Origin: Saccharicrinis fermentans DSM 9555 = JCM 21142
Lineage (GTDB): Bacteria > Bacteroidota > Bacteroidia > Bacteroidales > Marinilabiliaceae
DNA: 64,000 nt
Assembly (NCBI RefSeq): GCF_000517085.1
Contig: NZ_KI912107.1
Location: 5,081,980 to 5,145,979 of the forward strand
Reading direction: 5' to 3'
Both the position numbers and the translations under genes were made by a program. Under the pieces are notes generated by a model. That model saw nothing but the letters and a program-made list of their open reading frames with translations. It made no database searches and had not been told where the DNA came from. This document shows, piece after piece, positions 42,687 through 63,999 of this stretch; position 1 is the first letter of the stretch; every line of letters begins with the position of its first letter.

Positions 42687-42880
42687 TAAATGGTTCTTTT
42701 AGTTGTATGAACATACAATTGGATTAAAAGGGAATGCAGTGAAAATCTGCAACAGTTCCCGCTGCTGTAAGTCCACCTCCGGTATTCCGGAAACAAGGGG
42801 TTTTTAAACTTCTGCCACTGTTTGTCATCAGATGAATGGGAAGGCATAAAAACCTGGACAAGTCAGAAGACCTGCCATTA
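42687..42880 (+). ncRNA. Cobalamin (B12) riboswitch
   Basis: The conserved elements occur in order: GGTTCTTTTA and the AAAAGGGAA arm, GTGAAAATCTGCAACAG, TCCCGCTGCTGTAAGT, GCCACTG, a hairpin GTCATCAGATGAAT, GGGAAGGC, and the B12 box AGTCAGAAGACCTGCC (42861-42875). ATGG (42690) can pair with CCAT near 42877 to close P1. It lies 126 bp upstream of the TonB receptor ATG and would switch off expression when B12 is plentiful. No clear T-run terminator follows, so control at translation of the receptor is likely. Confidence 0.95.
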
Positions 42881-43005
42881 CTTAATATTTTAAACATTTT
42901 GCTTCCGGGAAAGAAGTTATTGTTTTGAGCAGTTTTTCATTGTTCTTACATTATTCTCTTGATTTACGGAATTGCAAAGTGAAGTTGTTATTTTAAACTT
43001 TTACT

Positions 43006-46654: not shown

Positions 46655-46655
46655 A

Positions 46656-48699: not shown

Positions 48700-49742
48700 T
48701 AAAGAAAATTGGGAGGATATCGTTTGTGATTATGCTGGCCATTGTTTTATTGGTGGTTTTAGCTTCACTTAATTTAGTGCTGGGTTCGGTTCATATTCCT
48801 TTGCATGAGGTAAAGACTATCTTGTTTACAGGAGGAGGAGCTAATCGGGTGTTTGAGAATATTATCTTAAAAACACGTCTGCCACAAACCATTGTTTCCA
48901 TGGGAGCGGGGATGGCACTTGGGGTGGCAGGTTTGTTGATGCAGACGCTGTTTCGTAACCCATTGGCAGGACCGTCTGTATTGGGTATTTCTTCTGGTTC
49001 CAGTCTGGGTGTGGCTTTTGTGATGCTTTTTACCGGAAATATTTTAGGTTTTACTTTTACCAGTATGGGAGCCTGGGGAGATTTTGCAGTTATTTTTTCG
49101 TCCCTTTTGGGAGCTGCCGGCGTACTGGCTTTGATTTTATTTATATCGCATCGCATAGGAGGCACCTTAAGTGTATTGATAATTGGTGTTATGATCGGCT
49201 ACCTGAGTAGTTCATTGGTTAGTCTTTTAAAATTCTATAGTCCTGAAGAGGATGTGCATAATTATGTTATATGGGGCTTGGGTAGTTTTAGCCGCTTGGC
49301 ACCTGACAGAGCATCATTGTTTGGAGTGATAACCATTGTTCCTGCTCTTATGGCAACGTGGCTCAGCAAACCACTTAACTTATTAGCTTTGGGAGATCGC
49401 TATGCCACTAACCTGGGCTTGAATATAAAAAAAGCCAGGTTTTTTATTATTGCCTTTGCCGGTTTTATGACAGCTATTGTTACTTCTTTTTGCGGACCTA
49501 TTATTTTTATAGGAGTAGCGGTACCTCATCTGGCAAAGTTGCTTTCAAAAACATCAAACCATTTTTTCTTGATACTCAATGCTGCACTCTTGGGTGCTGC
49601 CACAACACTTTTGTGTAATTTATTGGCGCGTATGCCCGGCGTGGAACAGGAATTACCCATCAACTCGGTGACGGCTTTTATTGGTGCACCTGTGGTAATA
49701 TGGGTCATCTGGAAACGACGTAAGGAAAATAGAATGGAGTAA
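48696..49742 (+). CDS. btuC: ABC importer permease (BtuC/FecCD family)
   Basis: A 348-residue inner-membrane permease with about ten segments. FecCD/BtuC marks are RLPQTIVSMGAGMALGVAGLLMQTLFRNPLAGPSVLGISSG near the N-terminus, WGLGSF, and CGPIIFIGVAVPHLAKLL in the gate region, ending in a charged tail. The ATGA overlap with btuF and a 4-bp gap to the ATPase gene show one operon. Forms the corrinoid import channel as a homodimer. Confidence 0.93.
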   Translation: MIKKIGRISFVIMLAIVLLVVLASLNLVLGSVHIPLHEVKTILFTGGGANRVFENIILKTRLPQTIVSMGAGMALGVAGLLMQTLFRNPLAGPSVLGISSGSSLGVAFVMLFTGNILGFTFTSMGAWGDFAVIFSSLLGAAGVLALILFISHRIGGTLSVLIIGVMIGYLSSSLVSLLKFYSPEEDVHNYVIWGLGSFSRLAPDRASLFGVITIVPALMATWLSKPLNLLALGDRYATNLGLNIKKARFFIIAFAGFMTAIVTSFCGPIIFIGVAVPHLAKLLSKTSNHFFLILNAALLGAATTLLCNLLARMPGVEQELPINSVTAFIGAPVVIWVIWKRRKENRME

Positions 49743-49746
49743 GATT

Positions 49747-50760
49747 TTGAAAAAGGAAATATTAAATATCAATAAGCTGACCATTGGTTACGGCAAAGGA
49801 AAGCGAAGCAAAGTGGTGCATGCAGGATTGAATGCAAGTATGTATGAGGGGGAATTGCTTTGTTTGCTGGGCGAGAATGGTACTGGTAAAAGTACCTTGA
49901 TTCGTACCATATGCGGTTTTCAAGCAGCATTGGATGGTGAGGCTTCCATGTTGGGAAAGAATCTTTTGAATCTTTCAGAAAAAGAGCTGTCAAAGATGGC
50001 TGCAGTTGTGCTAACTGATCGGGTTATCGTGCCTAATGCCACGGTTGAGGAGCTGGTTGGCTTGGGCCGAAGCCCCTATACCGGGACCTTTGGTATACTA
50101 AATGAAGAGGATAAGCGTATTGTACATTCGGCCATTCAAAAATGTGGAATACTCCATAAAAAGAAAGAACGGCTCTCGAATCTGAGCGATGGAGAAAAGC
50201 AAAAGGCTTTTATTGCCAAAGCACTGGCTCAGGATACGCTAGTGATTATTTTGGACGAGCCAACCGCCTTTTTGGATATGCCGTCGCGTGTTGAAATTAT
50301 TCATCTATTAAGGCAAATTGCCAATACTTCTGGCAAGTCAGTATTGATGTCAACTCATGATTTGGATTTGGCTATGCAAATGGCCGACAGATTGTGGTTG
50401 TTAACAGCTCATAAGCCACTCATGATTGGTAGCCCGGAGGATTTGTTGCTCACCAACGAGTTTCAGACTATTTTTCAGAAAAGTGGTATCGAGTTTGATA
50501 ACCGTACCGGCCTTTTTAGGGTTGAGTATGATTTTCAAGCATCCGTATCAGTACAGGGACATGGCTTTGAATATGTTTTGTTGCGCAGAGCATTGGCGCG
50601 TAAGGGCATCAAAACCACACAAAAAGATAAAGAGGAACCAGTGTGGGTGGAGATTAGTAATCAAGGAGAGGTGCTGTTTAATTTATATAAAAACAATGTT
50701 TGTGTCACCAGAGAAACTTCGGTGGAGCGGGTGGTTACGCATATATGTAAATTGTTATGA
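49747..50760 (+). CDS. btuD: ABC importer ATPase (BtuD-like) with C-terminal extension
   Basis: A 337-residue ATPase: Walker A GENGTGKST (about 42-50), signature LSDGEKQKA, Walker B LVIILDEPTAFLDMP, switch STHDLD. Starts with TTG. The ABC core ends near residue 250; a further ~85 residues (from FQASVSVQGHGFEYV to the end) form a small alpha/beta unit (LLRRALARKGIKTT; VWVEISNQGEVLFNLY) that BtuD of enteric bacteria lacks. It might be regulatory. Overlaps the nitrilase-family gene by ATGA. Confidence 0.92.
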   Translation: MKKEILNINKLTIGYGKGKRSKVVHAGLNASMYEGELLCLLGENGTGKSTLIRTICGFQAALDGEASMLGKNLLNLSEKELSKMAAVVLTDRVIVPNATVEELVGLGRSPYTGTFGILNEEDKRIVHSAIQKCGILHKKKERLSNLSDGEKQKAFIAKALAQDTLVIILDEPTAFLDMPSRVEIIHLLRQIANTSGKSVLMSTHDLDLAMQMADRLWLLTAHKPLMIGSPEDLLLTNEFQTIFQKSGIEFDNRTGLFRVEYDFQASVSVQGHGFEYVLLRRALARKGIKTTQKDKEEPVWVEISNQGEVLFNLYKNNVCVTRETSVERVVTHICKLL

Positions 50761-51554: not shown

Positions 51555-51568
51555 AAGAATCATGAGTG

Positions 51569-52579
51569 ATGATATATGGACATGGAGATGATCTTTATCA
51601 ATATGATAAGATACATATAAATTTTAGTTCCAATGTTAAGCCCGGTGGAATGGACCGAGGCTTAAAGAAACATCTGGAAAATAGTGTTTCGGACTGTAGC
51701 TCTTATCCGGAGCCCAGAGCCAAAGAATTAGAGTTGTGTATAGAACAGGCATATCACTTACCGCCAGGAAGTGCATTGGTTACCAATGGAGCGGTGGAGG
51801 CCTTTTATCTTCTTGCTGCTTGGAAACAAGGATGTAATTCGTTGATTTATTACCCCTCTTTCTCTGAATATGAAGATGCTTGCCATAGGTATAATCATAA
51901 GCTTGAATTTGTATCCAATACAGAGCTTCAGGATAAGGTGGTGTATGGACAACATTTGGTGTGGTTGTGCAATCCAAATAATCCAGATGGTAAGATTTTC
52001 AGACCAGATACTCTTCAAGCTGTTGTTGAATATAACAAAGGCACTTTGTTTGTGATTGATGAGGCTTATATTGATTTTGTGGAGGAGGATGTATCCATGA
52101 TAAAATGGTTGTCTGCATACAAGAACTTAATAATTATCCGCTCTCTCACCAAGCGTTTTGTTATACCTGGATTGCGATTGGGATATTTGTTGGCAGCTCC
52201 GGATATAGTTGCTCAGCTTGAAAAATTAATCATTCCCTGGCGTATCAATATCTTAGCCCAAAAGGCAGGGATGTACTGTTTAAAAGAAGGGTGTAAGGAT
52301 GGTTTTGATTTGGCCACGATCCTTAAGGAATCAAAGAGACTGCAAAATGAAATTAACAAGGTAGATGGTTTCTCGGTTGTATTTTCGGATACTACTTTTT
52401 TTCTGGTTAAATCTCGATGGAAAGCAAGTGAGGTAAAAAGTAAGCTGATTGATAAATATGGCATATTGATACGGGATGCTTCTAATTTTAGAGGATTGAC
52501 AGATGAGCATTTTCGTGTGGCCTGTCAAACGCCATCGCAAAATAATGAACTCATTAAAGCATTCAGAAAGTGGAGATAG
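51569..52579 (+). CDS. cobD: L-threonine-O-3-phosphate decarboxylase CobD
   Basis: PLP enzyme that makes (R)-1-amino-2-propanol phosphate, the linker between corrin ring and lower ligand. About 336 residues with class I/II aminotransferase fold: INFSSNVKPGG, VTNGAVEAFYLLA, WLCNPNNPDGKIF, VIDEAYIDF and the PLP lysine Lys195 in RSLTKRFVIPGLRLGYL. The histidinol-phosphate aminotransferase relatives look alike, but the B12 context makes CobD more likely. ATG 51569 chosen; a GTG just before is in frame. Overlaps cbiB by 10 bp. Confidence 0.9.
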   Translation: MIYGHGDDLYQYDKIHINFSSNVKPGGMDRGLKKHLENSVSDCSSYPEPRAKELELCIEQAYHLPPGSALVTNGAVEAFYLLAAWKQGCNSLIYYPSFSEYEDACHRYNHKLEFVSNTELQDKVVYGQHLVWLCNPNNPDGKIFRPDTLQAVVEYNKGTLFVIDEAYIDFVEEDVSMIKWLSAYKNLIIIRSLTKRFVIPGLRLGYLLAAPDIVAQLEKLIIPWRINILAQKAGMYCLKEGCKDGFDLATILKESKRLQNEINKVDGFSVVFSDTTFFLVKSRWKASEVKSKLIDKYGILIRDASNFRGLTDEHFRVACQTPSQNNELIKAFRKWR

Positions 52580-53526
52580 TATATGGTCATTGTGTGGCGT
52601 TAGTCGTAGGTTTTATTTTGGATAAAGCTTTGGGGGATCCAACCTGCCTTCCTCACCCCATTGTAGTCTTTGGAAATATGATTGCATTGGCTGATAAAAA
52701 ATTAAATCACCATCCTTATCGATTATGGAAAGGGGCACTTAGTTCACTAGTGATGGTTGTGGTTGTGTATTTGTTTTTTGCAGGTCTCATATATGGAGCA
52801 TATGCGATACATCTGTTTGTGGGGTGTTTTGTTGAAAGCATTTTTGTTTTTTATGGTATTGCTGCCACCACGTTGATCAATGAGGGTAAGGCAGTTTTTG
52901 GTGTGCTGGAAAAGGAGGGTTTAGAACAGGGGCGGAGACAATTGGCTCGTATTGTGGGACGTGATACCAGCCAGATAGATGAGGAACATATTAAAAAAGC
53001 TACACTGGAGACGTTGGCAGAAAACTTGAGTGATGGGGTGGTGGCTCCTTTGTTTTGGTTTATCATAGGTGGTGTGCCTGCCATGATGAGCTATAAGATG
53101 ATCAATACACAGGATTCAATGATAGGTTATAAGAGTGATAAATATTTGTATTATGGTCGTTTTTCGGCCAAGCTGGATGACGTGGTGAATTATATACCGG
53201 CGAGAATAACTGCTTTTTTGATGGCCTTGTTTAGCTTTAAAAAGAAAGCCTTTCGGTTTATTTTCTGGTTCGGAAGAGCACATACCAGTCCTAACGCTGG
53301 TTACCCGGAAGCAGCTTTGGCCGGCATCCTTGATGTGCAATTTGGGGGTACGCATGTTTATTTTGGAAAGGCTGTTCGTAAACCTGTTATAGGAGAAAAG
53401 GATCGTATTATTTTGGGTTCCGACCTGGATAAGACAGTGCGTAATATGCAATGGGTTGTGGTTGGAATGGTACTCATAGGTATGGCTGTTCTTTTGAGCA
53501 TGCATTTGCCCTTGAGCCTATGGTAA
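52570..53526 (+). CDS. cbiB: Adenosylcobinamide-phosphate synthase CbiB
   Basis: Membrane enzyme joining the aminopropanol linker to adenosylcobyric acid. 318 residues with about four to five hydrophobic segments. Family marks: ALVVGFILDKALGDPTCLPHPIV, RIVGRDTSQIDEEHIKKATLETLAENLSDGVVAPLFW, YKMINTQDSMIGYKSDKY, and a DDVVNYIPARITAFL block. Starts with GTG inside the 3' end of cobD; no other suitable start exists. Confidence 0.95.
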   Translation: MEIVYGHCVALVVGFILDKALGDPTCLPHPIVVFGNMIALADKKLNHHPYRLWKGALSSLVMVVVVYLFFAGLIYGAYAIHLFVGCFVESIFVFYGIAATTLINEGKAVFGVLEKEGLEQGRRQLARIVGRDTSQIDEEHIKKATLETLAENLSDGVVAPLFWFIIGGVPAMMSYKMINTQDSMIGYKSDKYLYYGRFSAKLDDVVNYIPARITAFLMALFSFKKKAFRFIFWFGRAHTSPNAGYPEAALAGILDVQFGGTHVYFGKAVRKPVIGEKDRIILGSDLDKTVRNMQWVVVGMVLIGMAVLLSMHLPLSLW

Positions 53527-53567
53527 TGATATATGATAAAAGTTAAAGCATTTAAATAAATTCCCAG

Positions 53568-54638
53568 ATGGAAGCATTAAAAAATTTGAATATTCAGAGT
53601 ACCGGTAATGCGGAGTTGGAAGAGGCACTTCAGCATAAAATTGACCGGAAAACCAAACCTATTGGTTCGTTGGGACAGATGGAACGTATTGCAGCACAGG
53701 TTGGGTTAATACAGCAGACCCTATCTCCAAAGCTCTGCAAACCAGTGATGTTGACCGTGGCTTCTGATCACTGGATTACCGATGAGGGTGTTAGTCCTGT
53801 GAGTACTAATATTACATGGCAGCAGGTGCTTAATTTTATTGGTGGCGGAGGCGGTATAGGCTTGTTTTGTGATGTTTATGGCTTTGACTTGTATGTGGTT
53901 GATGCGGGTGTTAATTATGATTTTCCTGAGCATCCCAAACTCATTGATAAAAAAGTAAGAAAAGGGACACGTAATTTTTTGCATGAACATGCCATGACAG
54001 ATGAAGAGTGTAATCAAGCGATACAGAATGGTCGTGATGTGGTTCGCTCTTTTGCACAAAAGGGTAGTAATGTGGTTGCTTTCGGAGAAATGGGGATAGG
54101 AAACACCAGTCCGGCTACGGCTTTACTTTCTGTATTTTCCTCAACGCCTGTTGAAACTTGTACAGGGCCGGGATGTGGCTTAAGTCCTGATGGAGTGGTG
54201 AATAAAGCAGCAGTGTTAAAGCAGGCCATTGCTAAACATGGCATTGCTGATAAGCCGGAGGATAATTTGGCTCGCTTTGGAGGATTGGAGATTGCTACCA
54301 TCGCCGGAGGAATGTTGGAGGCTGCTGCTCAAAGAATGCTGATTGTGGTGGATGGTTTTATTACCTCTTCGGCCTTTATGGCTGCCTATGAAATTTGTTC
54401 TACGGTTAAAGAGTATGCAGTTTTTGCACATTCTTCCAAGGAAAATGGTCATAAATTAATGTTGGGGCATATGAAGGCAGAGGCGATTATGGATTTAGAT
54501 TTGCGTTTGGGAGAAGGAACAGGAGCCGCAGTTGCTTACCCCATCATTCAGGGCAGTGTTGAAATGTTAAATAGGATGACCACTTTTGATGAAACAGAAG
54601 TGGAAGATACGACGAGTGTTAAATATATTGAGAAATAG
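53568..54638 (+). CDS. cobT: Nicotinate-nucleotide:dimethylbenzimidazole phosphoribosyltransferase CobT
   Basis: Activates the lower ligand base for attachment to cobinamide. 356 residues; marks include KTKPIGSLGQMERIA, MLTVASDHWITDEGVS, FGEMGIGNTSPATALLSV, GPGCGLSPDGVVNK and the C-terminal RLGEGTGAAVAYPII with the catalytic-type Glu (about residue 311). Specificity for benzimidazoles, purines or phenols cannot be told. 41 bp after cbiB, one of the longer gaps in the operon. Confidence 0.96.
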   Translation: MEALKNLNIQSTGNAELEEALQHKIDRKTKPIGSLGQMERIAAQVGLIQQTLSPKLCKPVMLTVASDHWITDEGVSPVSTNITWQQVLNFIGGGGGIGLFCDVYGFDLYVVDAGVNYDFPEHPKLIDKKVRKGTRNFLHEHAMTDEECNQAIQNGRDVVRSFAQKGSNVVAFGEMGIGNTSPATALLSVFSSTPVETCTGPGCGLSPDGVVNKAAVLKQAIAKHGIADKPEDNLARFGGLEIATIAGGMLEAAAQRMLIVVDGFITSSAFMAAYEICSTVKEYAVFAHSSKENGHKLMLGHMKAEAIMDLDLRLGEGTGAAVAYPIIQGSVEMLNRMTTFDETEVEDTTSVKYIEK

Positions 54639-54639
54639 C

Positions 54640-55959
54640 ATGGTACATAATTCAATGTCATCATTCTTGGTGGCGGCCCCCAAGAGTAATTCAGGCAAGA
54701 CTATGGTTACGCTTGGTTTGATGCACGCTTTGGTAAAGCGTGGTTTTAAGGTGCAACCCTTTAAGTGCGGTCCTGACTATATTGATCCCATGCATCATAC
54801 AAAGATAGCAGGAAAGTCATCCTATAACCTAGATCTATGGATGTCTTCTGCTGAGCATGTGCAAGATGTTTTTAAAAAGCAGAGTAGAGATGCTGATGTG
54901 GCCATAGCCGAAGGTGTTATGGGGTTGTTTGATGGAGCCAAAAAAGATGAAGGAAGCTCGGCTGCAGTGGCTCGACTGTTACATATGCCGGTTGTCTTGG
55001 TGGTGGATGCATCCAGCACAGCTTATTCTGTGGCTCCTCTTTTATATGGTTTTAAAAACTTTGATACACGTATAAAGTTAGCCGGTGTTATTTTTAATAA
55101 AGTGGCCAGTGAATCGCATTTTCAGTTTTTAAAAGAAGCGTCCATAGATGCAGGGGTGGATGTGTTAGGTTATTTGCCTCGTGATGAACGCTTGCATATT
55201 GAATCACGTCACCTCGGACTTCATTTGCCAGGTGAAAATAAGAACCTGAAAATAGTAGGGGTGGCTGCTGAGCTATTGGAGCAGAAGGTAGATATAGATT
55301 TGTTGTTGAGCCTTTCAAAACGAGAAGAAATGACCATTGCTTCAACACAGGATCGTGCTGGCGGAAAACTGAGAATAGCGATGGCTCACGATGAGGCATT
55401 TAGTTTCTCCTATTCTGCCAACCGTGATGTTTTATTGCAATTAGGGGATGTAAAGGAATTTAGTCCCTTGCACGATAACGCTTTGCCAGAGGCAGATTTA
55501 GTGTGGTTGCCGGGTGGATACCCTGAGTTGTTTGCCCAGGAATTGTCGGAGAATGGAGCCATGAGAAGGGCTATTATTAGTTATATTGATTCAGGAAAAG
55601 CATTGATAGCCGAATGTGGCGGAATGATGTATCTGGGAAATAAACTGATACAGAAAAATGGAGAGGCCTTTGAGATGTGTGGTGTATTTGATTTTGATAC
55701 TTCGTTTGAACACATGAAATTACACCTGGGGTATCGGGAGCTCTTGGGACACAGTATGGCCGTGAGAGGACATGAGTTTCATTATTCCAGACTTATTGGA
55801 AAAGAAAAAGGGAGTGCTGAATTTCAGGTTAAAACAGCACGTAATAAAACGGCAGAAATGGCGGTCTTTAGAGAAAAAAACTGCTGGGCTTCGTATATGC
55901 ATCTTTATTTGGGAGAGAAAGAAAAAATGCAGCAATTGTTAAATGAATTGGGTTTATGA
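54640..55959 (+). CDS. cbiA: Cobyrinate a,c-diamide synthase CbiA
   Basis: ATP- and glutamine-dependent amidase of corrin side chains a and c. From the ATG at 54640, 1 bp after the cobT stop, it has 440 residues. The dethiobiotin-synthase-like N-domain has the P-loop APKSNSGKTMV, KCGPDYIDPMHH and VAEGVMGLFDG (IAEGVMGLFDGAKKD); the class I glutaminase domain has the nucleophile in AECGGMMYLG (about Cys326) and a late HxY pair (SYMHLYLG). An in-frame start at 54586 would lie within cobT and is rejected. ATGA overlap with cbiL. Confidence 0.95.
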   Translation: MVHNSMSSFLVAAPKSNSGKTMVTLGLMHALVKRGFKVQPFKCGPDYIDPMHHTKIAGKSSYNLDLWMSSAEHVQDVFKKQSRDADVAIAEGVMGLFDGAKKDEGSSAAVARLLHMPVVLVVDASSTAYSVAPLLYGFKNFDTRIKLAGVIFNKVASESHFQFLKEASIDAGVDVLGYLPRDERLHIESRHLGLHLPGENKNLKIVGVAAELLEQKVDIDLLLSLSKREEMTIASTQDRAGGKLRIAMAHDEAFSFSYSANRDVLLQLGDVKEFSPLHDNALPEADLVWLPGGYPELFAQELSENGAMRRAIISYIDSGKALIAECGGMMYLGNKLIQKNGEAFEMCGVFDFDTSFEHMKLHLGYRELLGHSMAVRGHEFHYSRLIGKEKGSAEFQVKTARNKTAEMAVFREKNCWASYMHLYLGEKEKMQQLLNELGL

Positions 55960-56660
55960 ATAAACAAGGTAAATTAACAGGGGTGGGGCTGGGACCCGGA
56001 GAACCGGAATTAATTACGGTGAAGGGCTTGAGAGCCTTGCAAGCAGCTGATATTATTTTTTATCCGGCAACGAAGGTGGGTGGAGGTAATAATGTATCCT
56101 TCTCTGCCAGGATATTAGATGCGTTGGAGCTTAAAGTCACTTGTGCCCCATTGTATATTCCTATGTCGGGGAAAAATAGAGCAGATAACTACCAGGTAGC
56201 TTTTGATGCCATCAAAAAAGAATATGATGCCGGAAGGCACGTAGCCGTGGTTTCAGAAGGTGATTTGTTATTTTATAGCACCTTTGGCTATTTGTTGGAT
56301 TTGGCTAAGAAAGAGCAGATGAATTACGAATTAATTCCTGGCATTCCTGCATTTATTGCAGCAGGGTCTCAAGGTGTCCAAGCCATTGTGGAAGGTAACC
56401 AAGCGTTTAAGGTGATCGCCCGGCCAGATAGTTTCGAGCAAATTGAGGAGGCCTTGAAAGAGAATGTAACCTTGGTGGTGATGAAAATGAGTGTGTTAAA
56501 AGACTGGTATCTTTTTTTGAAGAATAGTAGTCATGCATTTTTTTATATAGAAAAAGTAGGAACAGATCAGCAATTTTCAACAACAGAGGATAAGGATTTG
56601 GAATGTAGAACAATACCTTATTTTTCATTAATCGTATTTTATGGACAAAAAGATTTATAG
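55956..56660 (+). CDS. cbiL: Cobalt-precorrin-2 C20-methyltransferase CbiL
   Basis: SAM-dependent methyltransferase of the uroporphyrinogen methylase fold. 234 residues: GVGLGPGEPELITVKGLRALQAADIIFYP is the CbiL N-terminus, VAVVSEGDLLFYSTFGYLL the second SAM motif, and ELIPGIPAFIAAGS the third. The C-terminus overlaps cbiH by 20 bp. A place in the early-cobalt route is inferred from the pathway type in this operon. Confidence 0.94.
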   Translation: MNKQGKLTGVGLGPGEPELITVKGLRALQAADIIFYPATKVGGGNNVSFSARILDALELKVTCAPLYIPMSGKNRADNYQVAFDAIKKEYDAGRHVAVVSEGDLLFYSTFGYLLDLAKKEQMNYELIPGIPAFIAAGSQGVQAIVEGNQAFKVIARPDSFEQIEEALKENVTLVVMKMSVLKDWYLFLKNSSHAFFYIEKVGTDQQFSTTEDKDLECRTIPYFSLIVFYGQKDL

Positions 56661-58044
56661 TATAGGGATAGGTCCGGGGAAAGAACAATTTCTTACACCG
56701 CAAGCTAAATATGCCATTGAGGCGGCTGAGGTTATTGTAGGGTATAGTTACTATTTTCAGCACGTAAGTCAGTTGACCCACGGTAAGGAGTTGATTGATA
56801 CCGGTATGAAAAAAGAGCGTCAAAGAGCCGAAAAGGCCTTTGAGTTGGCCGAAAGTGGTAAGGTAGTAGCCGTAATTAGTAGTGGTGATTCCGGAGTATA
56901 CGGAATGGCTCCTTTGTTGTGGGAGATGAAAGCTGAAAGGAATTCGGAGGTCGAACTGGAAGTAGTACCCGGAATATCAGCGATGTTTGCTGCAGCTGCT
57001 CGATTGGGAGCTCCATTGGGTCATGATTTTTGTTCTATATCCATGTCGGATCTACTAACGCCATGGGAGAAAATAGAGAAGCGCATTGTGGCAGCTGCCG
57101 AAGCTGACTTTGTGACCGCTGTATACAATCCTTTAAGTAAAGGTCGCTTTTGGCAATTGATGCGATTAAAGGAGTTGTTCCTAGAACAAAGATCGCCTGA
57201 TACACCTGTGGGTATTGCCCGGAATGTGGGGCGGGAAGATGAGAAGATTCAACTTGTTAAATTGGTAGATCTGGATGTGTCTATGGCTGATATGTTTACC
57301 GTTTTGATTATAGGGAATAGCCAAACTTTTAGTAGTGCTGGAAAGATGGTAACGCCAAGAGGTTACTATGTTTCTAAAGAAGTGAATTCGGATAAACTGG
57401 GACGACGTATTATGAATGAGAGCTTTCGGACTATTCTTGAGAATATAGATGTGTCAGATAGGTCCTTGGCCCATACATGGGTGGCATTGCATTGTATTCA
57501 TACCACGGCAGATTTTAGCTTAAATGAGTCTGTGGAATTGACGAATAATGTGGTGGAAGTACTGCATGAAAAGTTATATGCAGGACATCCTCCTGTTATT
57601 GTTACCGATGTGTCCATGGTCACCAGAGGTATCCGTCGTGCTACGGCGCAAAAATTGGGGTTGCAGATCAAATGTTATCTGGATGATGATCGGGTACGAC
57701 AAATGGCTTCGGATATGGATATAACCCGAACACAAGCCGGTATCCGTCTGGCAGTGCAGGAGCATCCCAATGCGATTTTTGCCTTTGGAAATGCTCCTAC
57801 TGCATTGATTGAACTGGTGAAACTGATACGTAATGGAAAGGCTCAGCCATCTGGTGTTGTGGCCGCGCCAGTGGGTTTTGTCAACGTAAGGGAAAGTAAA
57901 TGGCAGTTGAAATATGGCTGTCCTGATTTGCCAGCTGTTTTTGTAAACGGACGTAAGGGAGGAAGCAATGTGGCTGCGACCATACTCAATGCTATTTTAA
58001 GTTGGAACGAAGCCAAAGAAATGCATCCGGGAGAGGGACTTTAA
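56641..58044 (+). CDS. cbiHC: Fused CbiH (C17-methyltransferase) and CbiC (precorrin-8 methylmutase)
   Basis: A 467-residue bifunctional enzyme. Residues 1 to about 240 are CbiH: IYSIGIGPGKEQFLTPQAKYAI, VAVISSGDSGVYGMAPLLWE, VVPGISAMFAAAARLGAPLGHDF and NPLSKGR, which methylates C17 with ring contraction. Residues about 250 to 467 are CbiC: RIMNESFRTILENIDVSDRS, HCIHTTADF with the mutase His287, VTDVSMVTRGI, VVAAPVGFVNVRESKW and NGRKGGSNVAATILNAIL. Both catalytic regions are intact. Placing ring contraction and the methyl shift in one protein skips several steps between them. Confidence 0.95.
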   Translation: MDKKIYSIGIGPGKEQFLTPQAKYAIEAAEVIVGYSYYFQHVSQLTHGKELIDTGMKKERQRAEKAFELAESGKVVAVISSGDSGVYGMAPLLWEMKAERNSEVELEVVPGISAMFAAAARLGAPLGHDFCSISMSDLLTPWEKIEKRIVAAAEADFVTAVYNPLSKGRFWQLMRLKELFLEQRSPDTPVGIARNVGREDEKIQLVKLVDLDVSMADMFTVLIIGNSQTFSSAGKMVTPRGYYVSKEVNSDKLGRRIMNESFRTILENIDVSDRSLAHTWVALHCIHTTADFSLNESVELTNNVVEVLHEKLYAGHPPVIVTDVSMVTRGIRRATAQKLGLQIKCYLDDDRVRQMASDMDITRTQAGIRLAVQEHPNAIFAFGNAPTALIELVKLIRNGKAQPSGVVAAPVGFVNVRESKWQLKYGCPDLPAVFVNGRKGGSNVAATILNAILSWNEAKEMHPGEGL

Positions 58045-58225
58045 GTAGCGTATGGCTGTTGAAGGGTGCCATATATAAAGTGTTTTTTATGCGGAAGTAA
58101 CGATTGTGGTAGGCTTTATGCATGCCATGTAAATATAGCAAGCCAGCACTTGGGCATTGGAAGTTTGTATCTTGAACATAGGAGTGATCAAGTGATTTAT
58201 GTTTCATATTCATTGTTTATTATAA
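58045..58225 (+). other. Gap inside the cobalamin gene run
   Basis: 181 bp between the CbiHC and CbiET genes, the longest gap within the cob/cbi run. No B12 box or strong hairpin. TTGGAAGTTTGTATCTTG near 58157-58174 loosely recalls a promoter; a re-start of transcription outside riboswitch control is possible but unproven. Confidence 0.35.
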
Positions 58226-59422
58226 ATGAAGATTACAATTATAGGAATATCGGATCGAGTACCCGAGTTTACAGCCAAGGAGCAACGATTGATTCAATCG
58301 GTCAAATTTTTTGCTGGGGGTAGTCGGCATAAGCAGTTGGTAGCCGACCTTTTGCCCGCAGAAAGTAGTTGGCACGACATTATTGTACCCCTATCGAACT
58401 TGTATAAGGCCATAGAGGATGCCTGTGACGATTGGGTGATTTTTGCTTCGGGCGATCCGCTGTTCTATGGTATCGGCATAACTTTGAAACGTGAGTTTCC
58501 TGATGTGAAAATAGATATATTACCAGATTTTAACTCGTTGCAATTGTTGGCACATCAGTTTCAGTTACCCTATGGTGAGTTTCAAACGATTTCCTTAACA
58601 GGACGATCCTTTGATGCGTTTGATAAGGCACTGATACAAGGTAAAGAACGTATGGGGATTCTTACGGATAGAAAAAATACGCCGACTACTATCGCTCACC
58701 GTATGCTTGATTTCGGTTATACAAACTATAGCATGTATTTTGGAGAGTGTTTGGGAGGTGAGAATCAACGGGTGTTGAAATTGAGTATTGAGGATGCTGC
58801 AAAAATGACCTTTCAACATCCCAATTGTTTTTATCTGGAAAAGACCGATGATGTCATCCCTCTTAAAGGTATTGTGGAAAGTGCATTTGAACCTTTGGAA
58901 GGAAGGCCAAAAATGATTACTAAAATGCCCATCAGAATGGCAACACTGGCTTTTATGGAGCTGAATACCAAAAAGGTATTTTGGGACGTGGGAGCATGTA
59001 CGGGCAGTGTTTCAATTGATGCCCGTCTGAATCATCCGCACTTGAAAGTGGTCGCATTTGAAATCAGAAAGGAATCAGAAGGTATCATCCACCGGAATGC
59101 ACAAAAGTTTAAAGCGCCAGGTATTGAGGTTTTGATAGGTGATTATCTTCAGGTTCAAAAAAGGGAGTTGAAGAAGCCTGATGCTGTATTCTTAGGAGGG
59201 TATGGAGGACGAATGGAAGCTGTGTTGGATGATATTCATCTGTACTTGAAAGAGAAGGGGCTGATTGCTTTTAACTCAGTCAGCGAAAGCAGCAAAAAGC
59301 GTTTTGTCGCTTGGTGCCATCAGCGTGCATATCAGATCACGCAATCGGTTCAGATGAGCGTTGATCAATTTAACCCCATTACCATATTGATTGCGCAAAA
59401 ACCGGACAAACCAGATTTTTAA
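58226..59422 (+). CDS. cbiET: Fused CbiE-CbiT (CobL-like C5,C15-methyltransferase/decarboxylase)
   Basis: A 398-residue bifunctional protein. The CbiE half (1 to about 200) has KITIIGISDRVPEFT, FFAGGSRHKQL, VIFASGDPLFYGIGITLKR and ILPDFNSLQLLAHQFQLPY. The CbiT half (about 210-398) has a class I SAM fold with DVGACTGSVSIDA, VVAFEIRKESEGIIHRNAQKF and VFLGGYGGRMEAVL. It methylates C5 and C15 and decarboxylates the C12 side chain. The fusion is widespread, so not odd as such. Confidence 0.95.
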   Translation: MKITIIGISDRVPEFTAKEQRLIQSVKFFAGGSRHKQLVADLLPAESSWHDIIVPLSNLYKAIEDACDDWVIFASGDPLFYGIGITLKREFPDVKIDILPDFNSLQLLAHQFQLPYGEFQTISLTGRSFDAFDKALIQGKERMGILTDRKNTPTTIAHRMLDFGYTNYSMYFGECLGGENQRVLKLSIEDAAKMTFQHPNCFYLEKTDDVIPLKGIVESAFEPLEGRPKMITKMPIRMATLAFMELNTKKVFWDVGACTGSVSIDARLNHPHLKVVAFEIRKESEGIIHRNAQKFKAPGIEVLIGDYLQVQKRELKKPDAVFLGGYGGRMEAVLDDIHLYLKEKGLIAFNSVSESSKKRFVAWCHQRAYQITQSVQMSVDQFNPITILIAQKPDKPDF

Positions 59423-59500
59423 GGATGCCAATGCTTAGCGGATATTAAAGCAGGATTTTTGCCATCTAATAATGATTTTTAATAATAGAAATTCATATCA

Positions 59501-61267
59501 ATGATAATAATAACACACTCAGATAAGGGAGAACTGCTGGCAAAGCAGTTGATTGAGAAGGGGCTAGGAGCAGAAGTGCATCGCTCGCCCAACGATTATG
59601 GTGTTCTTTGGAACAGCCATAAAGTATTGGTTTTTATTGGCGCTTTAGGTATCTGTGTGCGAGAGATAGCCCCGTACTTAAAAGATAAAAAGACCGACCC
59701 TGCTGTGCTGAATATGGATGTTAATGGACAGTTTGTGCAGCCAGTTGTATCCGGTCATATTGGAGGAGGTAATCAGTGGGCTAAAGAAATAGGACGTTTA
59801 TGTGGGGCGCAGCCTGTGATAACAACAGTTAGTGACACCGCAGGTTTGTGGGCGCTTGATTTATTGCCACAAAAATACAGTTGGCAACTGGAGTGTGGGA
59901 ATCAACTGACCCACCTGATGGCTTCATTTGTGAATGGAGAAAAAACAGCGCTGTTGTTGGAGGTCAGGGATAAAGGTACATTGGATTTAGAGAGCAGTGC
60001 ACCATCGCATGTGGACGTATTTTTTAATGCGAAAGAGATGCAGGTTGAAGATTATAGCGTTGTGATAGCGGTTACACCATTTATTTATGATTTTGGGGAT
60101 AAGGCTATTTTTTATCGTCCTAAAGTACTACAATTGGGTTTGGGCTGTCAGCGTGACCTGCCCTTTGAATTATTTGAAAGAGAATTGTTGGCGAGTCTGC
60201 AACAGCACAAGATTGCCTTTGCCTCTGTAGCCGCAGCAGGGACAGTGGATTTAAAAGCAGATGAGGAGGCTTTTTTGGCCTTTAGTAAGAAGCATCATAT
60301 AGCACTTAAGTCTTTTGATGGAGCTACCTTAGCTCAATACGATATTCCGAACCCCTCGGCGAAAGTAAGCCAAGTGACAGGAAGTTATGGTGTGGCAGAG
60401 GCTGCTGCCATGCATTTATCGGACAATGGTCTTCTGGTGGAAAAAACAAAGATGAAGGCTGGGGAAAAGTTTTTTACTTTTTCGGTGGCTATTCATAAAG
60501 AAAATGAACGCAAAGGATTTGTTGAGATAGTTGGTGCAGGACCTGGTGACCCGGAATTGGTTTCTGTGAAAGGTAAAAAGTTATTGGAAACGGCAGACCT
60601 AATATTGTATGCGGGTAGTTTGGTGCCTAAAGAATTAACCTATTATGCAAAGTCGGGTTGTGTGGTAAAAAGTTCGGCCAAAATGGATTTGCTGACGCAG
60701 ATAGAAACGATGCGTCCTTTCTATGAACGAGGATTGTTGGTGGTGCGACTACATACTGGTGATCCATGTATCTATGGGGCTATTCAAGAACAAATGGCCA
60801 TCATGGATCAGATGGGCTGGAGCTATCGTATTACACCGGGAATATCTTCCTTTCAAGCCGCTGCGGCAGCTTTGCGGTCGCAGTTCACCATTCCGGAAGA
60901 GGTGCAAACCATTATACTCACCCGAGGAGAAGGAAGAACACCTGTGCCTGAGCGAGAGCAGTTGAGAAAACTGGCTAAGTCGCAAAGTACCATGTGTATC
61001 TACCTAAGTGCTTCCATTGCAGAAAAAGTGGAACACGAACTGATACAGCACTATCCCTCAGAAACACCTGTGGCTGTGTGTTATAAGTTAACCTGGAGGG
61101 ATGAGAAGATATATCGTTGTACACTGGGAACACTGGCGAAGACGGTGCGTGAGAATAAGCTTACCATGACGACCTTGATTGTGGTAGGAAAAGCAATCGA
61201 TAATCGTTCAGGTTTTTCAAAGTTGTATGACAAAAAATTTACCCATGCTTTTCGGCAAGGAAAATAA
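59501..61267 (+). CDS. cbiGF: Fused CbiG (cobalt-precorrin-5A hydrolase) and CbiF (C11-methyltransferase)
   Basis: A 588-residue bifunctional enzyme. The CbiG part (1 to about 330) has LVFIGALGICVREIAPYLKDKKTDPAV, QPVVSGHIGGGNQWAKEIG and VITTVSDTAG, then the C-terminal CbiG domain (LGLGCQRDLPFELFERELL; VTGSYGVAEAAAM). The CbiF part (about 340-588) has FVEIVGAGPGDPELVSVKG, LILYAGSLVP, VRLHTGDPCIYGAI, RITPGISSFQAAAAAL and TIILTRGEGRTPVPE. CbiG marks the anaerobic route, since it releases acetaldehyde from cobalt-precorrin-5A. The two steps are consecutive (F then G), which suits a fusion. 78 bp after cbiET and last of the operon. Confidence 0.95.
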   Translation: MIIITHSDKGELLAKQLIEKGLGAEVHRSPNDYGVLWNSHKVLVFIGALGICVREIAPYLKDKKTDPAVLNMDVNGQFVQPVVSGHIGGGNQWAKEIGRLCGAQPVITTVSDTAGLWALDLLPQKYSWQLECGNQLTHLMASFVNGEKTALLLEVRDKGTLDLESSAPSHVDVFFNAKEMQVEDYSVVIAVTPFIYDFGDKAIFYRPKVLQLGLGCQRDLPFELFERELLASLQQHKIAFASVAAAGTVDLKADEEAFLAFSKKHHIALKSFDGATLAQYDIPNPSAKVSQVTGSYGVAEAAAMHLSDNGLLVEKTKMKAGEKFFTFSVAIHKENERKGFVEIVGAGPGDPELVSVKGKKLLETADLILYAGSLVPKELTYYAKSGCVVKSSAKMDLLTQIETMRPFYERGLLVVRLHTGDPCIYGAIQEQMAIMDQMGWSYRITPGISSFQAAAAALRSQFTIPEEVQTIILTRGEGRTPVPEREQLRKLAKSQSTMCIYLSASIAEKVEHELIQHYPSETPVAVCYKLTWRDEKIYRCTLGTLAKTVRENKLTMTTLIVVGKAIDNRSGFSKLYDKKFTHAFRQGK

Positions 61268-61318: not shown

Positions 61319-62272
61319 TTAATCTAGTTTAGCGTCTTCCAAATGTGACAGCCAAATGTTATTTATTTCAGTATAATCTCCTAATCCTTTCATTACATCA
61401 GTAACCATATAGCCTTCCTTTTCCAGTTTAACTCTCCATGATTGTTCTTCTGCAGGCGCCGTATCATCAATAATACCGTTCATGTCATTGTTGGCATGGT
61501 CGCCGGCAATGGACATCAAAGGAGTGATGGTCACTTTCTGAGAATTCAGGTCCAGTGTTTTTAGTTTAGTGATGATAGCGTCGATGGAGGTGATGCCAGC
61601 TTCAAAGCCTACACCTTCAACCGTTCCAATAAAGAAGTGGGGAGCTAGCTTTTGTAATTCAGCCTCCAATTCTAGGTAGACTTTATCGTTTTCATGTGGA
61701 GTACCATGTCCCATAAAAAGTACTGGTTCGCCGGATACTCTCTGATCAGAGAATTTATCGGCCAAAATGGCTGCAACATCTTTTAAATCTTGGGTAGAAC
61801 TGAGTAATGGTTTGCCAACTGCTATTTCTACACCGGGGTATTTATGCATTGTCTCTTCTACGGCTTCCATCAGTTCGTCATATTCTTCACCCGGGATTAC
61901 ATGTAACGATTGGATACTTATTTTTCGGTAGCCATCTTCTTCAATCATGATCCTCAACCCTTCTTGCGGGGTATCCCTGTCTATGATTTGTCCGTTTAAG
62001 CTTCCTTCCCCGTTACCTTGGCGTAGTTTGTTCAGGATAATATCTGAGGTGTAACCCCAGCGTATCTCTTCTCCTGTAAACTTTTCTTTGGCGGTGACAT
62101 CAATATTTTCGAATGTCTTTTGAGGGGCTTCGTAGCTAGAACCGAAGGTAACCAGCATGATACCGTCTTTGTTTCCTAGTTCAAACTCATTTGAGGAGTT
62201 GTCATCATCGCAAGCAGGCAGTAATACCGCTATTGCAAATAAGATTACAAGTTTTTTTTTAATACTAAACAT
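61319..62272 (-). CDS. CbiK-like chelatase lipoprotein
   Basis: A 317-residue second CbiK homologue, exported as a lipoprotein: signal with lipobox LLPAC (Cys21), followed by an acidic DDDNSSNE linker. The chelatase body starts at GIMLVTFGSSYEAPQKTF and keeps HVIPGEEYDEL, the metal-ligand His189 (LFMGHGTPHEN) and His259 (MSIAGDHANNDM). Compared with the homologue at 46656 it has insertions (GNGEGSLNGQIIDRDT and GIIDDTAPAE). It lies 38 bp downstream of a TonB receptor gene on the same strand, so both are likely one transcript. Role: periplasmic or surface metal insertion, removal, or tetrapyrrole binding; which one is unknown. Confidence 0.88.
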   Translation of the reverse strand: MFSIKKKLVILFAIAVLLPACDDDNSSNEFELGNKDGIMLVTFGSSYEAPQKTFENIDVTAKEKFTGEEIRWGYTSDIILNKLRQGNGEGSLNGQIIDRDTPQEGLRIMIEEDGYRKISIQSLHVIPGEEYDELMEAVEETMHKYPGVEIAVGKPLLSSTQDLKDVAAILADKFSDQRVSGEPVLFMGHGTPHENDKVYLELEAELQKLAPHFFIGTVEGVGFEAGITSIDAIITKLKTLDLNSQKVTITPLMSIAGDHANNDMNGIIDDTAPAEEQSWRVKLEKEGYMVTDVMKGLGDYTEINNIWLSHLEDAKLD

Positions 62273-62310
62273 AGTGTTTGATTTTAATGAATGTTTATTT
62301 TGGTTGATAA

Positions 62311-63999
62311 TTAGTTTGTCTGTTTTTCTTTGGCGAATTGAATTTTAATACCTGCATAAAGTGTTCTTCCAGGATTTAATGTTCCATAATGAGATCCATA
62401 TGGACTATCGTCCACATAGTTGAATATATTATCAATGCCAGAGGTTAATGTGATATCCATATTTTTAAATTGTTTGTATTCGTAATTGGCTGTTAGCTTC
62501 CATAGTTGATAGGGTTTGGCATAGCTTTTTGTCAAATCTTCTTCCAGATAAAATTTTTCTGATTTGTAAACGCCTGATATAAGTAGGTTTAGTTTGTTTT
62601 TTAAGCATTTTTTATTCCAGGATACTTTAAGAGTTGCGCTGTGTTTTGATACGCCATTTAATGGGATGTTCTCTGTCATATTTTTGGCATCCACATAGCT
62701 ATACCCTCCTTGCAGTGAGATGGGATGACTTATTCTGTAGCTGAAATAGTAATCGATGCCCAAGGTTCGTGCATTATCAATATTGTAGCGCATTTTGGTT
62801 TCTTCAATGCCTTGACGGGCATGTTCGTATTCCGTGGGAATAATTTCGAAGTCTATCTTATCGTAGATTCTGTTGTGATATACATTGAATCCGGTTGTGA
62901 TTGTTTTCAATTTAATTTCTGGTGCGTATGATAAATAATGGGAGCGTTGAGGTTTTAATTCTTCATTGCCTAAATAGAGACGTAATGCTCCCATTCGTTC
63001 ACTTTTGTAGTAGTAGTATAGCTCTTTCAGCGTTGGACTTTTGAAACCATATGCGTAATTGACTCTGTGGGTTATTTTTGACTGTTTGTACATGGCTGAA
63101 ACCTTGGGTGTTGCCGAAGTGCCTGTGATATTATGTGATAGTAAACGTAATCCCGCAACCAAGACGGTTTTTTTAGTTAGCTTTATTTCATCCTGACAAT
63201 AAATAGATGCAGTATGGGCTGATACCGTGGGTTTTGTTAATCGGTATTTGGCTTCAAGCTTATCGCTCATCAGTTCAGCACCCATACTTAATTTGTTCTT
63301 TGAGTTCATATGTACAACAGTTTTAAACTGTGCATTTATGATTCTTTGTGCCGAATTTCTAAAACGATCGCCAGGATAATAGGTCACCTTAATTAGATCG
63401 TCATTTGTGATGTATGTCTCATTATATTTGTATGGATATTCGTTGTAATACAAGTAATTTCCATAATCAATATTCAGCTCCATATAGTTTTTGTTTTTTA
63501 ACTTATAGTATACACCCAATGCTGCATTTTGATTGTTGTAATAATAGTTATGCATTCGTCCTTTAAATGGAAAGTAAAGCGTTTTTTCGTACCAAGAAGC
63601 GTGCGTATGTATTTGTAGTTTTTTTGAAAAATGGTAATCAAAATTTTGGGTGATGGTATAACCACGTGATTTGTTTACTGGTTTATCATATGTGCGAACT
63701 AAAAAAGGTAGGTTGTGATTGCTTTCCCAAGATGGATTATATTTCATGTTATTGAGCTGCCAACCATCGATTTGTTGATAGGAGAACGTTGTTTTTGAAG
63801 AAAGTGCTCCTTTGTTGTAGGAGAAGGCGTTGAATTGTTTGAAATCACCATACTCTCCCATTCGCGTGTTGTTAGAGATGGTAGTTTTCTTCTTTTCTTT
63901 TTTTGTAATGATATTGATTACCCCGGCAATGGCATCGGATCCATATAGGGTTGAAGATGCCCCTTTGACAATTTCAATTTGTTCAATATCATCTGTGCT
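62311..63999 (-). CDS. TonB-dependent receptor, N-terminus beyond window end
   Basis: Reading on the minus strand the frame is open to the window edge, so at least 562 residues are visible and the signal, regulatory domain and part of the plug are cut off. The visible part starts in the plug (IEQIEIVKGASSTLYGSDA, then IAGVINIITKK) and continues as a barrel ending GRTLYAGIKIQFAKEKQTN. It is a paralogue of the BtuB-like receptor at 43006: the plug segment YGSDAIAGVINIITKK and the C-terminal YVDDSPYGSHYGT are identical. Followed by a CbiK-like lipoprotein. Corrinoid, cobalt chelate or haem are plausible cargos. Any riboswitch would lie outside the window. Confidence 0.92.
   Translation of the reverse strand, partial: STDDIEQIEIVKGASSTLYGSDAIAGVINIITKKEKKKTTISNNTRMGEYGDFKQFNAFSYNKGALSSKTTFSYQQIDGWQLNNMKYNPSWESNHNLPFLVRTYDKPVNKSRGYTITQNFDYHFSKKLQIHTHASWYEKTLYFPFKGRMHNYYYNNQNAALGVYYKLKNKNYMELNIDYGNYLYYNEYPYKYNETYITNDDLIKVTYYPGDRFRNSAQRIINAQFKTVVHMNSKNKLSMGAELMSDKLEAKYRLTKPTVSAHTASIYCQDEIKLTKKTVLVAGLRLLSHNITGTSATPKVSAMYKQSKITHRVNYAYGFKSPTLKELYYYYKSERMGALRLYLGNEELKPQRSHYLSYAPEIKLKTITTGFNVYHNRIYDKIDFEIIPTEYEHARQGIEETKMRYNIDNARTLGIDYYFSYRISHPISLQGGYSYVDAKNMTENIPLNGVSKHSATLKVSWNKKCLKNKLNLLISGVYKSEKFYLEEDLTKSYAKPYQLWKLTANYEYKQFKNMDITLTSGIDNIFNYVDDSPYGSHYGTLNPGRTLYAGIKIQFAKEKQTN

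What the first reader, a model, noticed from the sequence alone, without database searches (positions are those of the whole stretch)
61319..63999. Second module: TonB receptor plus CbiK-like lipoprotein next to the B12 locus
On the opposite strand the B12 locus is mirrored by a paralogous TonB receptor and a CbiK-like lipoprotein, again with both chelatase histidines. The receptors share identical plug (YGSDAIAGVINIITKK) and C-terminal (YVDDSPYGSHYGT) stretches. Two independent pairings of receptor with exported chelatase argue that the pair is a functional unit, not chance. A lipid-anchored chelatase could act at the periplasmic face or cell surface and strip or load metal on a tetrapyrrole delivered by or to the receptor. 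I know of no described system of exactly this make-up.
Basis: partly seen in the sequence, partly recalled or inferred. Interest (0 to 1): 0.75.

Follow-up and report, generated by a model that had tools for sequence, protein, structure and literature searches.

The report
B12-switched receptor with surface chelatase lipoprotein
This bacterium carries a small gene pair under a vitamin-B12 switch that makes an outer-membrane import channel and a lipid-anchored protein shaped like a cobalt-inserting enzyme; such pairs recur in related bacteria and match a little-understood system of a gum bacterium that has been filed under heme uptake.

Summary
A CbiK-family lipoprotein gene lies 38 bp behind a TonB receptor gene that the window end cuts. 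A cobalamin riboswitch (RF00174, 89.3 bits) precedes the receptor, just outside the window. Of 23 CbiK lipoproteins found in related genomes, 20 abut a TonB receptor and 18 have a cobalamin riboswitch within 5 kb upstream; of 17 CbiK genes classed as cytosolic none abuts a receptor. So the pair is a real unit in the B12 regulon. It is not undescribed: Porphyromonas gingivalis IhtA/IhtB (IhtB = FetB) has the same make-up, riboswitch included, FetB falls inside this lipoprotein clade (99/97), and a surface chelatase serving a receptor has been proposed there, with heme as cargo. Regulation and neighbours point to cobalt or corrinoids; receptor profiles do not: in 6 of 8 such receptors the hemin model outscores the B12 model, all below cut-off. 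The cargo is open. Unexpectedly, 20 of 29 related genomes show no CbiX and no CbiK classed as cytosolic, yet the 12 of them tested match the corrin-ring protein CbiG/CbiF.

The parts
61319..62272 (-). CbiK-fold lipoprotein (IhtB/FetB clade), possibly surface-exposed
   Evidence: PF06180 207.6 bits; best PDB match 9b86 FetB, E 1.7e-51 by sequence and TMt 0.91 by AlphaFold2 model; Cys then DDD at +2 to +4; metal residues H189, E219, H259; inside the lipoprotein clade with FetB, 99/97
62311..63999 (-). TonB-dependent receptor, C-terminal 562 aa; the gene runs on outside the window to about 64590, and a cobalamin riboswitch lies at 64688-64903 (-)
   Evidence: PF00593 111.1 bits and PF07715 28.6 bits; whole gene L004:1291-3570; riboswitch RF00174 89.3 bits at L004:3668-3883; window coordinate = L004 coordinate + 61020
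42674..42893 (+). cobalamin riboswitch of module 1
   Evidence: RF00174 88.1 bits
43006..45189 (+). TonB receptor of module 1 (paralogue)
   Evidence: PF00593/PF07715/PF13715; TIGR01779 TonB-B12 best NCBIfam match, 170.9 bits, below its 599.7 cut-off, with TIGR01785 TonB-hemin at 162.9
45179..46654 (+). PepSY_TM protein between the module-1 receptor and chelatase
   Evidence: PF03929 64.5 bits
46656..47540 (+). exported CbiK with an SPI-type signal (module 1), nearer to periplasmic D. vulgaris CbiK than to FetB
   Evidence: PF06180 277.9 bits; 2xvx 237.4 bits, 9b86 208.2 bits; tree
47563..50760 (+). BtuF-, BtuC- and BtuD-like importer genes downstream of module 1
   Evidence: PF01497 for the BtuF-like protein; BtuC and BtuD named by reading their sequence, not by a family search
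51566..61267 (+). corrin-ring and cobamide genes (names read from sequence: aminotransferase, cbiB, cobT, cbiA, cbiL, cbiH/C, cbiE/T, cbiG/F), ending 51 bp before the lipoprotein gene's stop
   Evidence: names recalled from sequence reading, homologues tracked by BLAST

Best explanation
Module 2 is a two-gene operon, riboswitch - TonB receptor - CbiK-fold lipoprotein, expected to be repressed when the cell has enough adenosylcobalamin. The lipoprotein is anchored by lipid, probably at the cell surface beside its receptor. There it captures a cobalt tetrapyrrole or corrinoid (complete or incomplete) in the CbiK cleft, possibly adding or removing metal with its retained His-Glu-His site, and hands it to the receptor for TonB-driven import. 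This is the job that BtuG does for BtuB, done with another fold. It is a member of the IhtA/IhtB kind. Shown here: the gene pair, the riboswitch match, the recurrence, the clade with FetB, the retained metal residues and the acidic residues after the lipid Cys. Inferred: regulation by B12 in this species, surface position, contact of the two proteins, cargo, and any catalysis.
For: Riboswitch 97 bp upstream of the chosen receptor start. 23 CbiK lipoproteins in 20 loci: 20 abut a same-strand receptor, the other 3 being one at 417 bp (L015) and two second tandem copies (L018, L037); 18 have a cobalamin riboswitch within 5 kb upstream, 15 of them at 2.2-2.8 kb, i.e. just before the receptor. Rfam confirms it in 8 of the 8 lipoprotein loci with an nhmmer riboswitch hit that were given to it. 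18 of 23 lie in a fetched stretch with other B12 genes by BLAST. L010, L015, L020 and L026 have no B12 gene by that BLAST but keep the riboswitch. Metal residues H-(E/D)-H in 23 of 23, with E in 16 and D in 7. At least 2 acidic residues at +2 to +6 in 19 of 23, against 0 of 20 BtuF lipoproteins from the same loci, which fits the Bacteroidetes surface-export signal (passages of PMC5080379). Receptor and lipoprotein distances correlate over 21 pairs, r 0.757, 0 of 10000 permutations. [quoted passage not shown]
Against: No cargo, binding or localisation data. The whole receptor scores 144 bits with TIGR01785 (hemin) and 100.5 with TIGR01779 (B12); hemin outscores B12 in 6 of 8 receptors of such pairs, B12 wins in 2 (L018, L065), all below the cut-offs 316.85 and 599.7. 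IhtB is described as putative heme-binding, and HaeR, a hemin-linked regulator, binds the ihtA promoter. The own genome has another receptor with a riboswitch and a propeller-like lipoprotein, so a second B12 port may be redundant. Five of 23 lipoproteins have no riboswitch within 5 kb: L006 (contig end), L028 and L031 (none by Rfam either), and two in L037 at 5.0 and 6.2 kb. The own CDDDN lacks the polar or basic residue before the acids that the minimal signal has. The distance correlation is not corrected for the species tree.
Confidence: 0.5

Rival explanations
1. Heme-iron acquisition, as annotated for Iht: the lipoprotein binds heme at the surface, removes its iron by reverse chelation and passes iron to the receptor.
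For: Closest solved relative is called heme-binding FetB. IhtB is described as putative heme-binding or (reverse) ferrochelatase (passages), and HaeR binds the ihtA promoter. In 6 of 8 receptors of such pairs, the own one included, the hemin profile outscores the B12 profile, all below cut-off.
Against: B12 riboswitch at 18 of 23 and B12 genes near 18 of 23. [quoted passage not shown] Disrupting B. fragilis cbiK BF638R_2502 did not affect heme-iron use (unpublished data quoted in PMC6460266; I did not check whether that gene is of the lipoprotein class). The D. vulgaris heme ligand His96 (recalled) is Asp132 here, and His in 2 of 23. The stretch between the FRAP and NPNL boxes, where heme receptors carry a His (recalled motif), could be located in 13 of 23 rows and has a His in 5 of these, not in the own receptor.
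Confidence: 0.25
2. Binding lid only: the CbiK fold has been recruited as a B12-capturing lipoprotein, like BtuG, BtuH or BtuJ, with no chelatase activity left.
For: Same operon logic and riboswitch as BtuB-BtuG (passages). The own genome seems to have such a pair too.
Against: His-Glu/Asp-His kept in 23 of 23. CbiK's known substrate sirohydrochlorin is much smaller than cobalamin (recalled).
Confidence: 0.13
3. Metallation outside the cytosol: the lipoprotein inserts cobalt into a metal-free tetrapyrrole at the surface, and the receptor brings cobalt in as the finished complex.
For: 20 of 29 genomes tested show no CbiX and no CbiK classed as cytosolic (a 21st, G789, is doubtful), yet 12 of these 20 were tested for CbiG/CbiF and all 12 match; G788, G790, G811 and G230 have only CbiK that my rule calls lipoprotein. 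No CbiM in the own genome. Desulfovibrio species with cbiK were said to lack known cobalt transporters, a new one being proposed (PMC545781, passage).
Against: The own genome has a CbiK without a signal. Met8/CysG-like proteins (PF13241) could insert cobalt in several of these genomes. Other chelatases and other cobalt transporters were not searched for. SPI-class genes may have internal starts. Export of the substrate is unknown. In G825 and G827 the CbiG/CbiF match is to divergent separate pieces.
Confidence: 0.08
4. Chance neighbours or an over-read family match.
For: TonB receptors are common in this genome, 89 plugs in 5.98 Mb.
Against: 20 of 23 adjacency against an expected 0.034 per gene; 0 of 17 among those classed as cytosolic. 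The 23 are related, so the printed binomial value overstates the odds.
Confidence: 0.01

Closest known systems
Iht system of Porphyromonas gingivalis (IhtA receptor, IhtB = FetB lipoprotein, IhtCDE)
   Same: TonB receptor and CbiK-like lipoprotein (PMC10913741, passages); B12 riboswitch upstream of the receptor gene (PMC3764172, passages); lipoprotein in one clade, 99/97. That IhtB and PDB FetB are one protein is recalled.
   Different: No ABC genes in the module-2 operon, although BtuFCD-like genes follow module 1; 38% identity to FetB; B12-synthesis genes flank it here
Periplasmic CbiK of Desulfovibrio vulgaris, PDB 2xvx
   Same: Exported CbiK fold, TMt 0.92; His-Glu-His metal residues; in Desulfovibrio one B12 element regulates cbiK-cbiL and btuCDF (PMC545781, passage)
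   Different: Periplasmic by its PDB title; heme ligand His96 (recalled) is Asp here; groups with the SPI and cytosolic class, i.e. with module 1, not with module 2
BtuB-BtuG (with BtuH/J/K/L) of Bacteroides thetaiotaomicron
   Same: Riboswitch, TonB receptor and surface lipoprotein (PMC10404256, passages)
   Different: BtuG is a beta-propeller (passage); 'chelatase' occurs 0 times in the main texts of PMC10404256, PMC12751083 and PMC8941943
Salmonella CbiK sirohydrochlorin cobaltochelatase, PDB 1qgo
   Same: Fold and both histidines
   Different: Module 2 scores 144.7 bits against a 400-bit equivalog cut-off; exported here
CobN/magnesium-chelatase genes beside a cobalamin TonB receptor in Chlorobaculum tepidum
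   Same: Chelatase genes beside a cobalamin receptor, with the published speculation that cobalt is inserted into corrinoid taken from outside (PMC8620254, passage)
   Different: Another chelatase class; no surface lipoprotein mentioned in the passage

Membership tests
Iht (IhtA/IhtB) module | TonB receptor directly beside a CbiK-like lipoprotein | tested here: met
Iht (IhtA/IhtB) module | lipoprotein groups with IhtB/FetB | tested here: met
   FetB inside the lipoprotein clade, 99/97; by pairwise score alone FetB is nearer to module 1
Iht (IhtA/IhtB) module | B12 riboswitch upstream of the receptor | tested here: met
   here; reported for ihtA in PMC3764172
Iht (IhtA/IhtB) module | ABC transporter genes (IhtCDE) in the same operon | tested here: not met
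   the lipoprotein is the last gene of the module-2 operon and the next gene is convergent; BtuFCD-like genes follow module 1 instead. I therefore file it under the IhtA/IhtB pair, not the whole Iht operon
Iht (IhtA/IhtB) module | lipoprotein binds heme | not testable with these tools
   needs binding assay
CbiK family (PF06180) | profile score over gathering cut-off | tested here: met
   207.6 against 26.2 bits
Sirohydrochlorin cobaltochelatase CbiK (NF047852 equivalog) | score over equivalog cut-off | tested here: not met
   144.7 against 400 bits
D. vulgaris CbiK-type heme-binding chelatase | His96 heme ligand (recalled) | tested here: not met
   Asp132 at the aligned place
BtuB (TIGR01779 equivalog) | score over cut-off | tested here: not met
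   100.5 bits for the whole receptor, cut-off 599.7
TonB heme/hemoglobin receptor (TIGR01785 subfamily) | score over cut-off | tested here: not met
   144 bits for the whole receptor, cut-off 316.85; higher than its B12 score
BtuB-BtuG | beta-propeller lipoprotein beside the receptor | tested here: not met
   CbiK fold
Surface lipoprotein of Bacteroidota | acidic export signal after the lipidated Cys | tested here: inconclusive
   CDDDN here, 19 of 23 kin with at least 2 acids against 0 of 20 controls; the residue before the acids in the minimal signal is missing

The most novel reading that the evidence does not exclude
Cobalt is loaded outside the cytosol: in several B12-making Bacteroidales the only detected class II chelatase is this lipoprotein. 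It inserts cobalt into a released or scavenged tetrapyrrole such as sirohydrochlorin, and its TonB receptor and a BtuFCD importer bring cobalt in as the complex that CbiL then uses. Cobalt uptake and chelation would be one step, and P. gingivalis Iht would be a remnant of that system rather than a heme system.
Probability: 0.08. Interest if true: 0.85.

Novelty: new member of a known kind. Interest (0 to 1): 0.45.

Why it matters
Iht/FetB of P. gingivalis is treated as a heme system. The survey shows that its kind recurs in Bacteroidales and mostly lies in the B12 regulon with B12 genes, so its cargo should be re-tested with corrinoids and cobalt. It would also be a second fold that a TonB receptor uses as lipoprotein partner for B12-related cargo, and it raises the question of how species without a detected cytosolic chelatase insert cobalt.

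Tried and rejected
Chance adjacency: rejected. FetB-like by best hit alone: by pairwise score FetB is nearer to the module-1 CbiK (208 bits) than to module 2 (178 bits), which spoke against the Iht reading; the tree with 60 rows put FetB in the lipoprotein clade all the same. CobN-type chelatase (PF02514) in the own genome: none. CbiM cobalt transporter: none; other cobalt transporters were not searched. The genome-contig scan with the lipoprotein gave only 2 loci.

Rows dropped before the counts (73 to 67): L001, L002, L003, L014 and the window copy of module 2 as duplicates, L007 (Clostridia). L043 and L044 gave no CbiK hit. Of the 16 f19 genomes with a match only 5 were fetched; G005 and G087 were not fetched. 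Tree: 10 rows dropped (L030, L033, L035, L038-L042, L049, L050), 3 PDB rows added. The counts hold near-copies (L032/L033, L046/L048, L028/L031). Class labels rest on a home-made signal rule: L041 was labelled SPI but is probably cytosolic (it stays in the 27), L066 is a fragment, L036 sits in the lipoprotein clade without a signal, L037:8498-9499 has a doubtful lipobox. Of the 29 genomes, G789 has an unexplained partial CbiX match of 24.8 bits over the 22-bit cut-off and is left out of the 20.
Full report
Observation. The window ends inside a TonB receptor gene (62311 to 63999 and beyond, minus strand) that is followed after 38 bp by a CbiK-family lipoprotein gene (61319-62272). The genome (window = G000:C3:5081980-5145979) completes the receptor; I take its start at the signal-peptide Met, L004:3570, about window 64590. 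A cobalamin riboswitch, RF00174 89.3 bits, lies 97 bp further up, at window coordinates 64688-64903, and the next gene is a divergent CbiJ-CbiD fusion (name read from sequence). Module 1 (43006-50760) has its own riboswitch (88.1 bits), a paralogous receptor, a PepSY_TM protein, an exported CbiK with an SPI-type signal, and BtuFCD-like genes. A third CbiK, 260 aa and without a signal, lies elsewhere in the genome. The nearest named relative of the lipoprotein is from Puteibacter caeruleilacunae, 74% identity.

Survey. PF06180 was searched in 395 genomes of the phylum (20 with a match over cut-off), 393 of the order (25) and 71 of the family (31). Stretches round the full-length hits of order and family, and round 5 of 16 from the phylum's f19 group, were fetched. 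After removal of duplicates 67 CbiK genes were classed by a home-made N-terminal rule: 23 lipoproteins, 27 SPI-like, 17 cytosolic. Same-strand TonB receptor within 400 bp: 20 of 23, 14 of 27, 0 of 17. Cobalamin riboswitch within 5 kb upstream: 18 of 23, 21 of 27, 5 of 17. Riboswitches were found with an nhmmer profile trained on 29 Rfam hits and confirmed by Rfam in 8 of the 8 lipoprotein loci with such a hit that were given to it; L006, L028 and L031 have none by Rfam. The three lipoproteins not adjacent are one at 417 bp (L015) and two second tandem copies (L018, L037). With 89 receptor plugs in 5.98 Mb, about 0.034 of genes would have one as neighbour by chance (gene number estimated from genome length). 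B12 genes lie in the same fetched stretch for 18 of 23.

Anatomy. The metal residues that correspond to D. vulgaris His154, Glu184 and His216 (numbers recalled, placed by counting in the alignment) are H-(E/D)-H in 23 of 23 lipoproteins, with E in 16 and D in 7. The heme ligand His96 of D. vulgaris (recalled) corresponds to Asp132 here and is His in 2 of 23. At least two acidic residues stand at +2 to +6 after the Cys in 19 of 23, against 0 of 20 BtuF lipoproteins taken from the same loci; a few of those control matches may be misplaced lipoboxes. Acidic runs there are the surface-export signal of Bacteroidetes (passages of PMC5080379). An AlphaFold2 model from four sequences (mean pLDDT 79.6) matches FetB (TMt 0.91), D. 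vulgaris CbiK (0.92) and Salmonella CbiK (0.89).

Receptor. Among PDB sequences the whole receptor is nearest to the colicin I receptor (4.9e-35), then BtuB (6.7e-18), ferric enterobactin receptors (2.8e-16), PhuR (2.2e-13) and ShuA (5.4e-7). NCBIfam profiles lean the other way: TIGR01785 hemin 144 bits, TIGR01779 B12 100.5, both below cut-off; in 8 receptors of such pairs hemin scores higher in 6 and B12 in 2, while the own BtuB-BtuG-like receptor (L074) matches B12 (94.1) and not hemin. So profiles do not settle the cargo, and they speak somewhat against mine. The His between the FRAP and NPNL boxes (recalled motif) is absent in the own receptor and present in 5 of the 13 rows in which the stretch could be located.

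Evolution. In a tree of 60 rows the lipoproteins, FetB and one unsignalled row (L036) form one set with support 99/97; the module-1 protein and D. vulgaris CbiK lie in another set. A first tree without FetB gave the same split of lipoproteins from the rest. Receptor and lipoprotein distance matrices correlate, r 0.757, 0 of 10000 permutations over 21 pairs, not corrected for the species tree.

What is known. PMC3764172 (passages) says of P. gingivalis that ihtABCDE encodes a TonB receptor and an ABC cassette, that IhtA is a BtuB homologue, and that a coenzyme B12 riboswitch lies upstream, citing Hirano 2012. PMC10913741 (passages) says that IhtB resembles CbiK, may remove iron from heme and pass it to IhtA, and is not regulated by PgFur. 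PMC6460266 (passages) reports as unpublished that a B. fragilis cbiK disruption did not affect heme-iron use. PMC7689651 (passages) names TonB receptors predicted to carry cobalt, one behind an adenosylcobalamin riboswitch, none confirmed. PMC8620254 (passage) quotes the idea that chelatases beside a cobalamin receptor in Chlorobaculum tepidum insert cobalt into imported corrinoid. Papers on B. thetaiotaomicron B12 loci (passages of PMC10404256, PMC12751083, PMC8941943) list BtuB with BtuG, H, J, K, L and do not use the word chelatase. In the listings of searches, and in the passages opened, I saw no paper that treats the CbiK lipoprotein and receptor as a B12 or cobalt unit across Bacteroidales; most listed papers were not opened, and the library lacks most subscription papers.

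Reading. The pair is a unit of the IhtA/IhtB kind behind a B12 riboswitch. By layout it is BtuB-BtuG with another fold. The own genome also has what looks like BtuB-BtuG itself: a riboswitch, a receptor and a lipoprotein whose best, though weak, PDB matches are YncE/surface-layer propellers (E 0.0038; that these are BtuG structures is recalled). So module 2 may take a different cargo, such as incomplete corrinoids, cobalt-sirohydrochlorin or cobalt porphyrins. This is inference.

An odd result. Of 29 genomes tested for CbiX, 8 have a full CbiX match or a CbiK classed as cytosolic, one (G789) has a doubtful partial CbiX match, and 20 have neither. 12 of these 20 were tested for CbiG/CbiF and all 12 match, in two of them (G825, G827) only as divergent separate pieces, one with a stop. 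In four of the 12 (G788, G790, G811, G230) only lipoprotein-class CbiK was found. A Met8/CysG-like protein (PF13241) may stand in for some: strong match in G788, none strong in G790, none in G811, G230 not tested. Internal starts could make cytosolic forms of the SPI class. I leave this open.

Noticed in passing
L074:6542-9609 (G000:C3 about 674500-677600), riboswitch C3:677687-677903: Third riboswitch-preceded TonB receptor in the genome, followed by a lipoprotein with weak propeller matches: looks like BtuB-BtuG.
   Followed up: partly
L005:7538-8320 (-): Orphan CbiK without a signal next to an ABC ATPase/permease pair, without a riboswitch in the fetched stretch.
   Followed up: partly
L011, L012, L013, L017, L019, L021, L022, L025, L027, L030, L035 (and L046:12671-13540): A class of exported CbiK in B12 loci has lost the His of the SLH motif but keeps His-Glu-His (12 of 27 SPI rows); 11 of them group together, support 88.
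   Followed up: partly
genomes G788, G790, G811, G230, G768, G800, G816-G818, G825, G827, G423 and eight others: 20 of 29 genomes show no CbiX and no CbiK classed as cytosolic, yet the 12 of them tested match CbiG/CbiF.
   Followed up: partly
L046:12671, L051:9553, L054:17435: SPI-class CbiK genes have an internal Met just before the enzyme domain (MEKK, MKTK), which could give a cytosolic form; L008 and L009 show none there.
   Followed up: no
L075 about 6104-6645: Two divergent cobalamin riboswitches in the own genome; one precedes a small membrane protein of 189 aa.
   Followed up: no
L076:3514-6963: A second riboswitch-preceded BtuFCD-like set in the own genome, names read from sequence.
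   Followed up: no
L036:9225-10329: A member of the lipoprotein clade without a signal peptide, with an Rfam FopS sRNA match just upstream.
   Followed up: no
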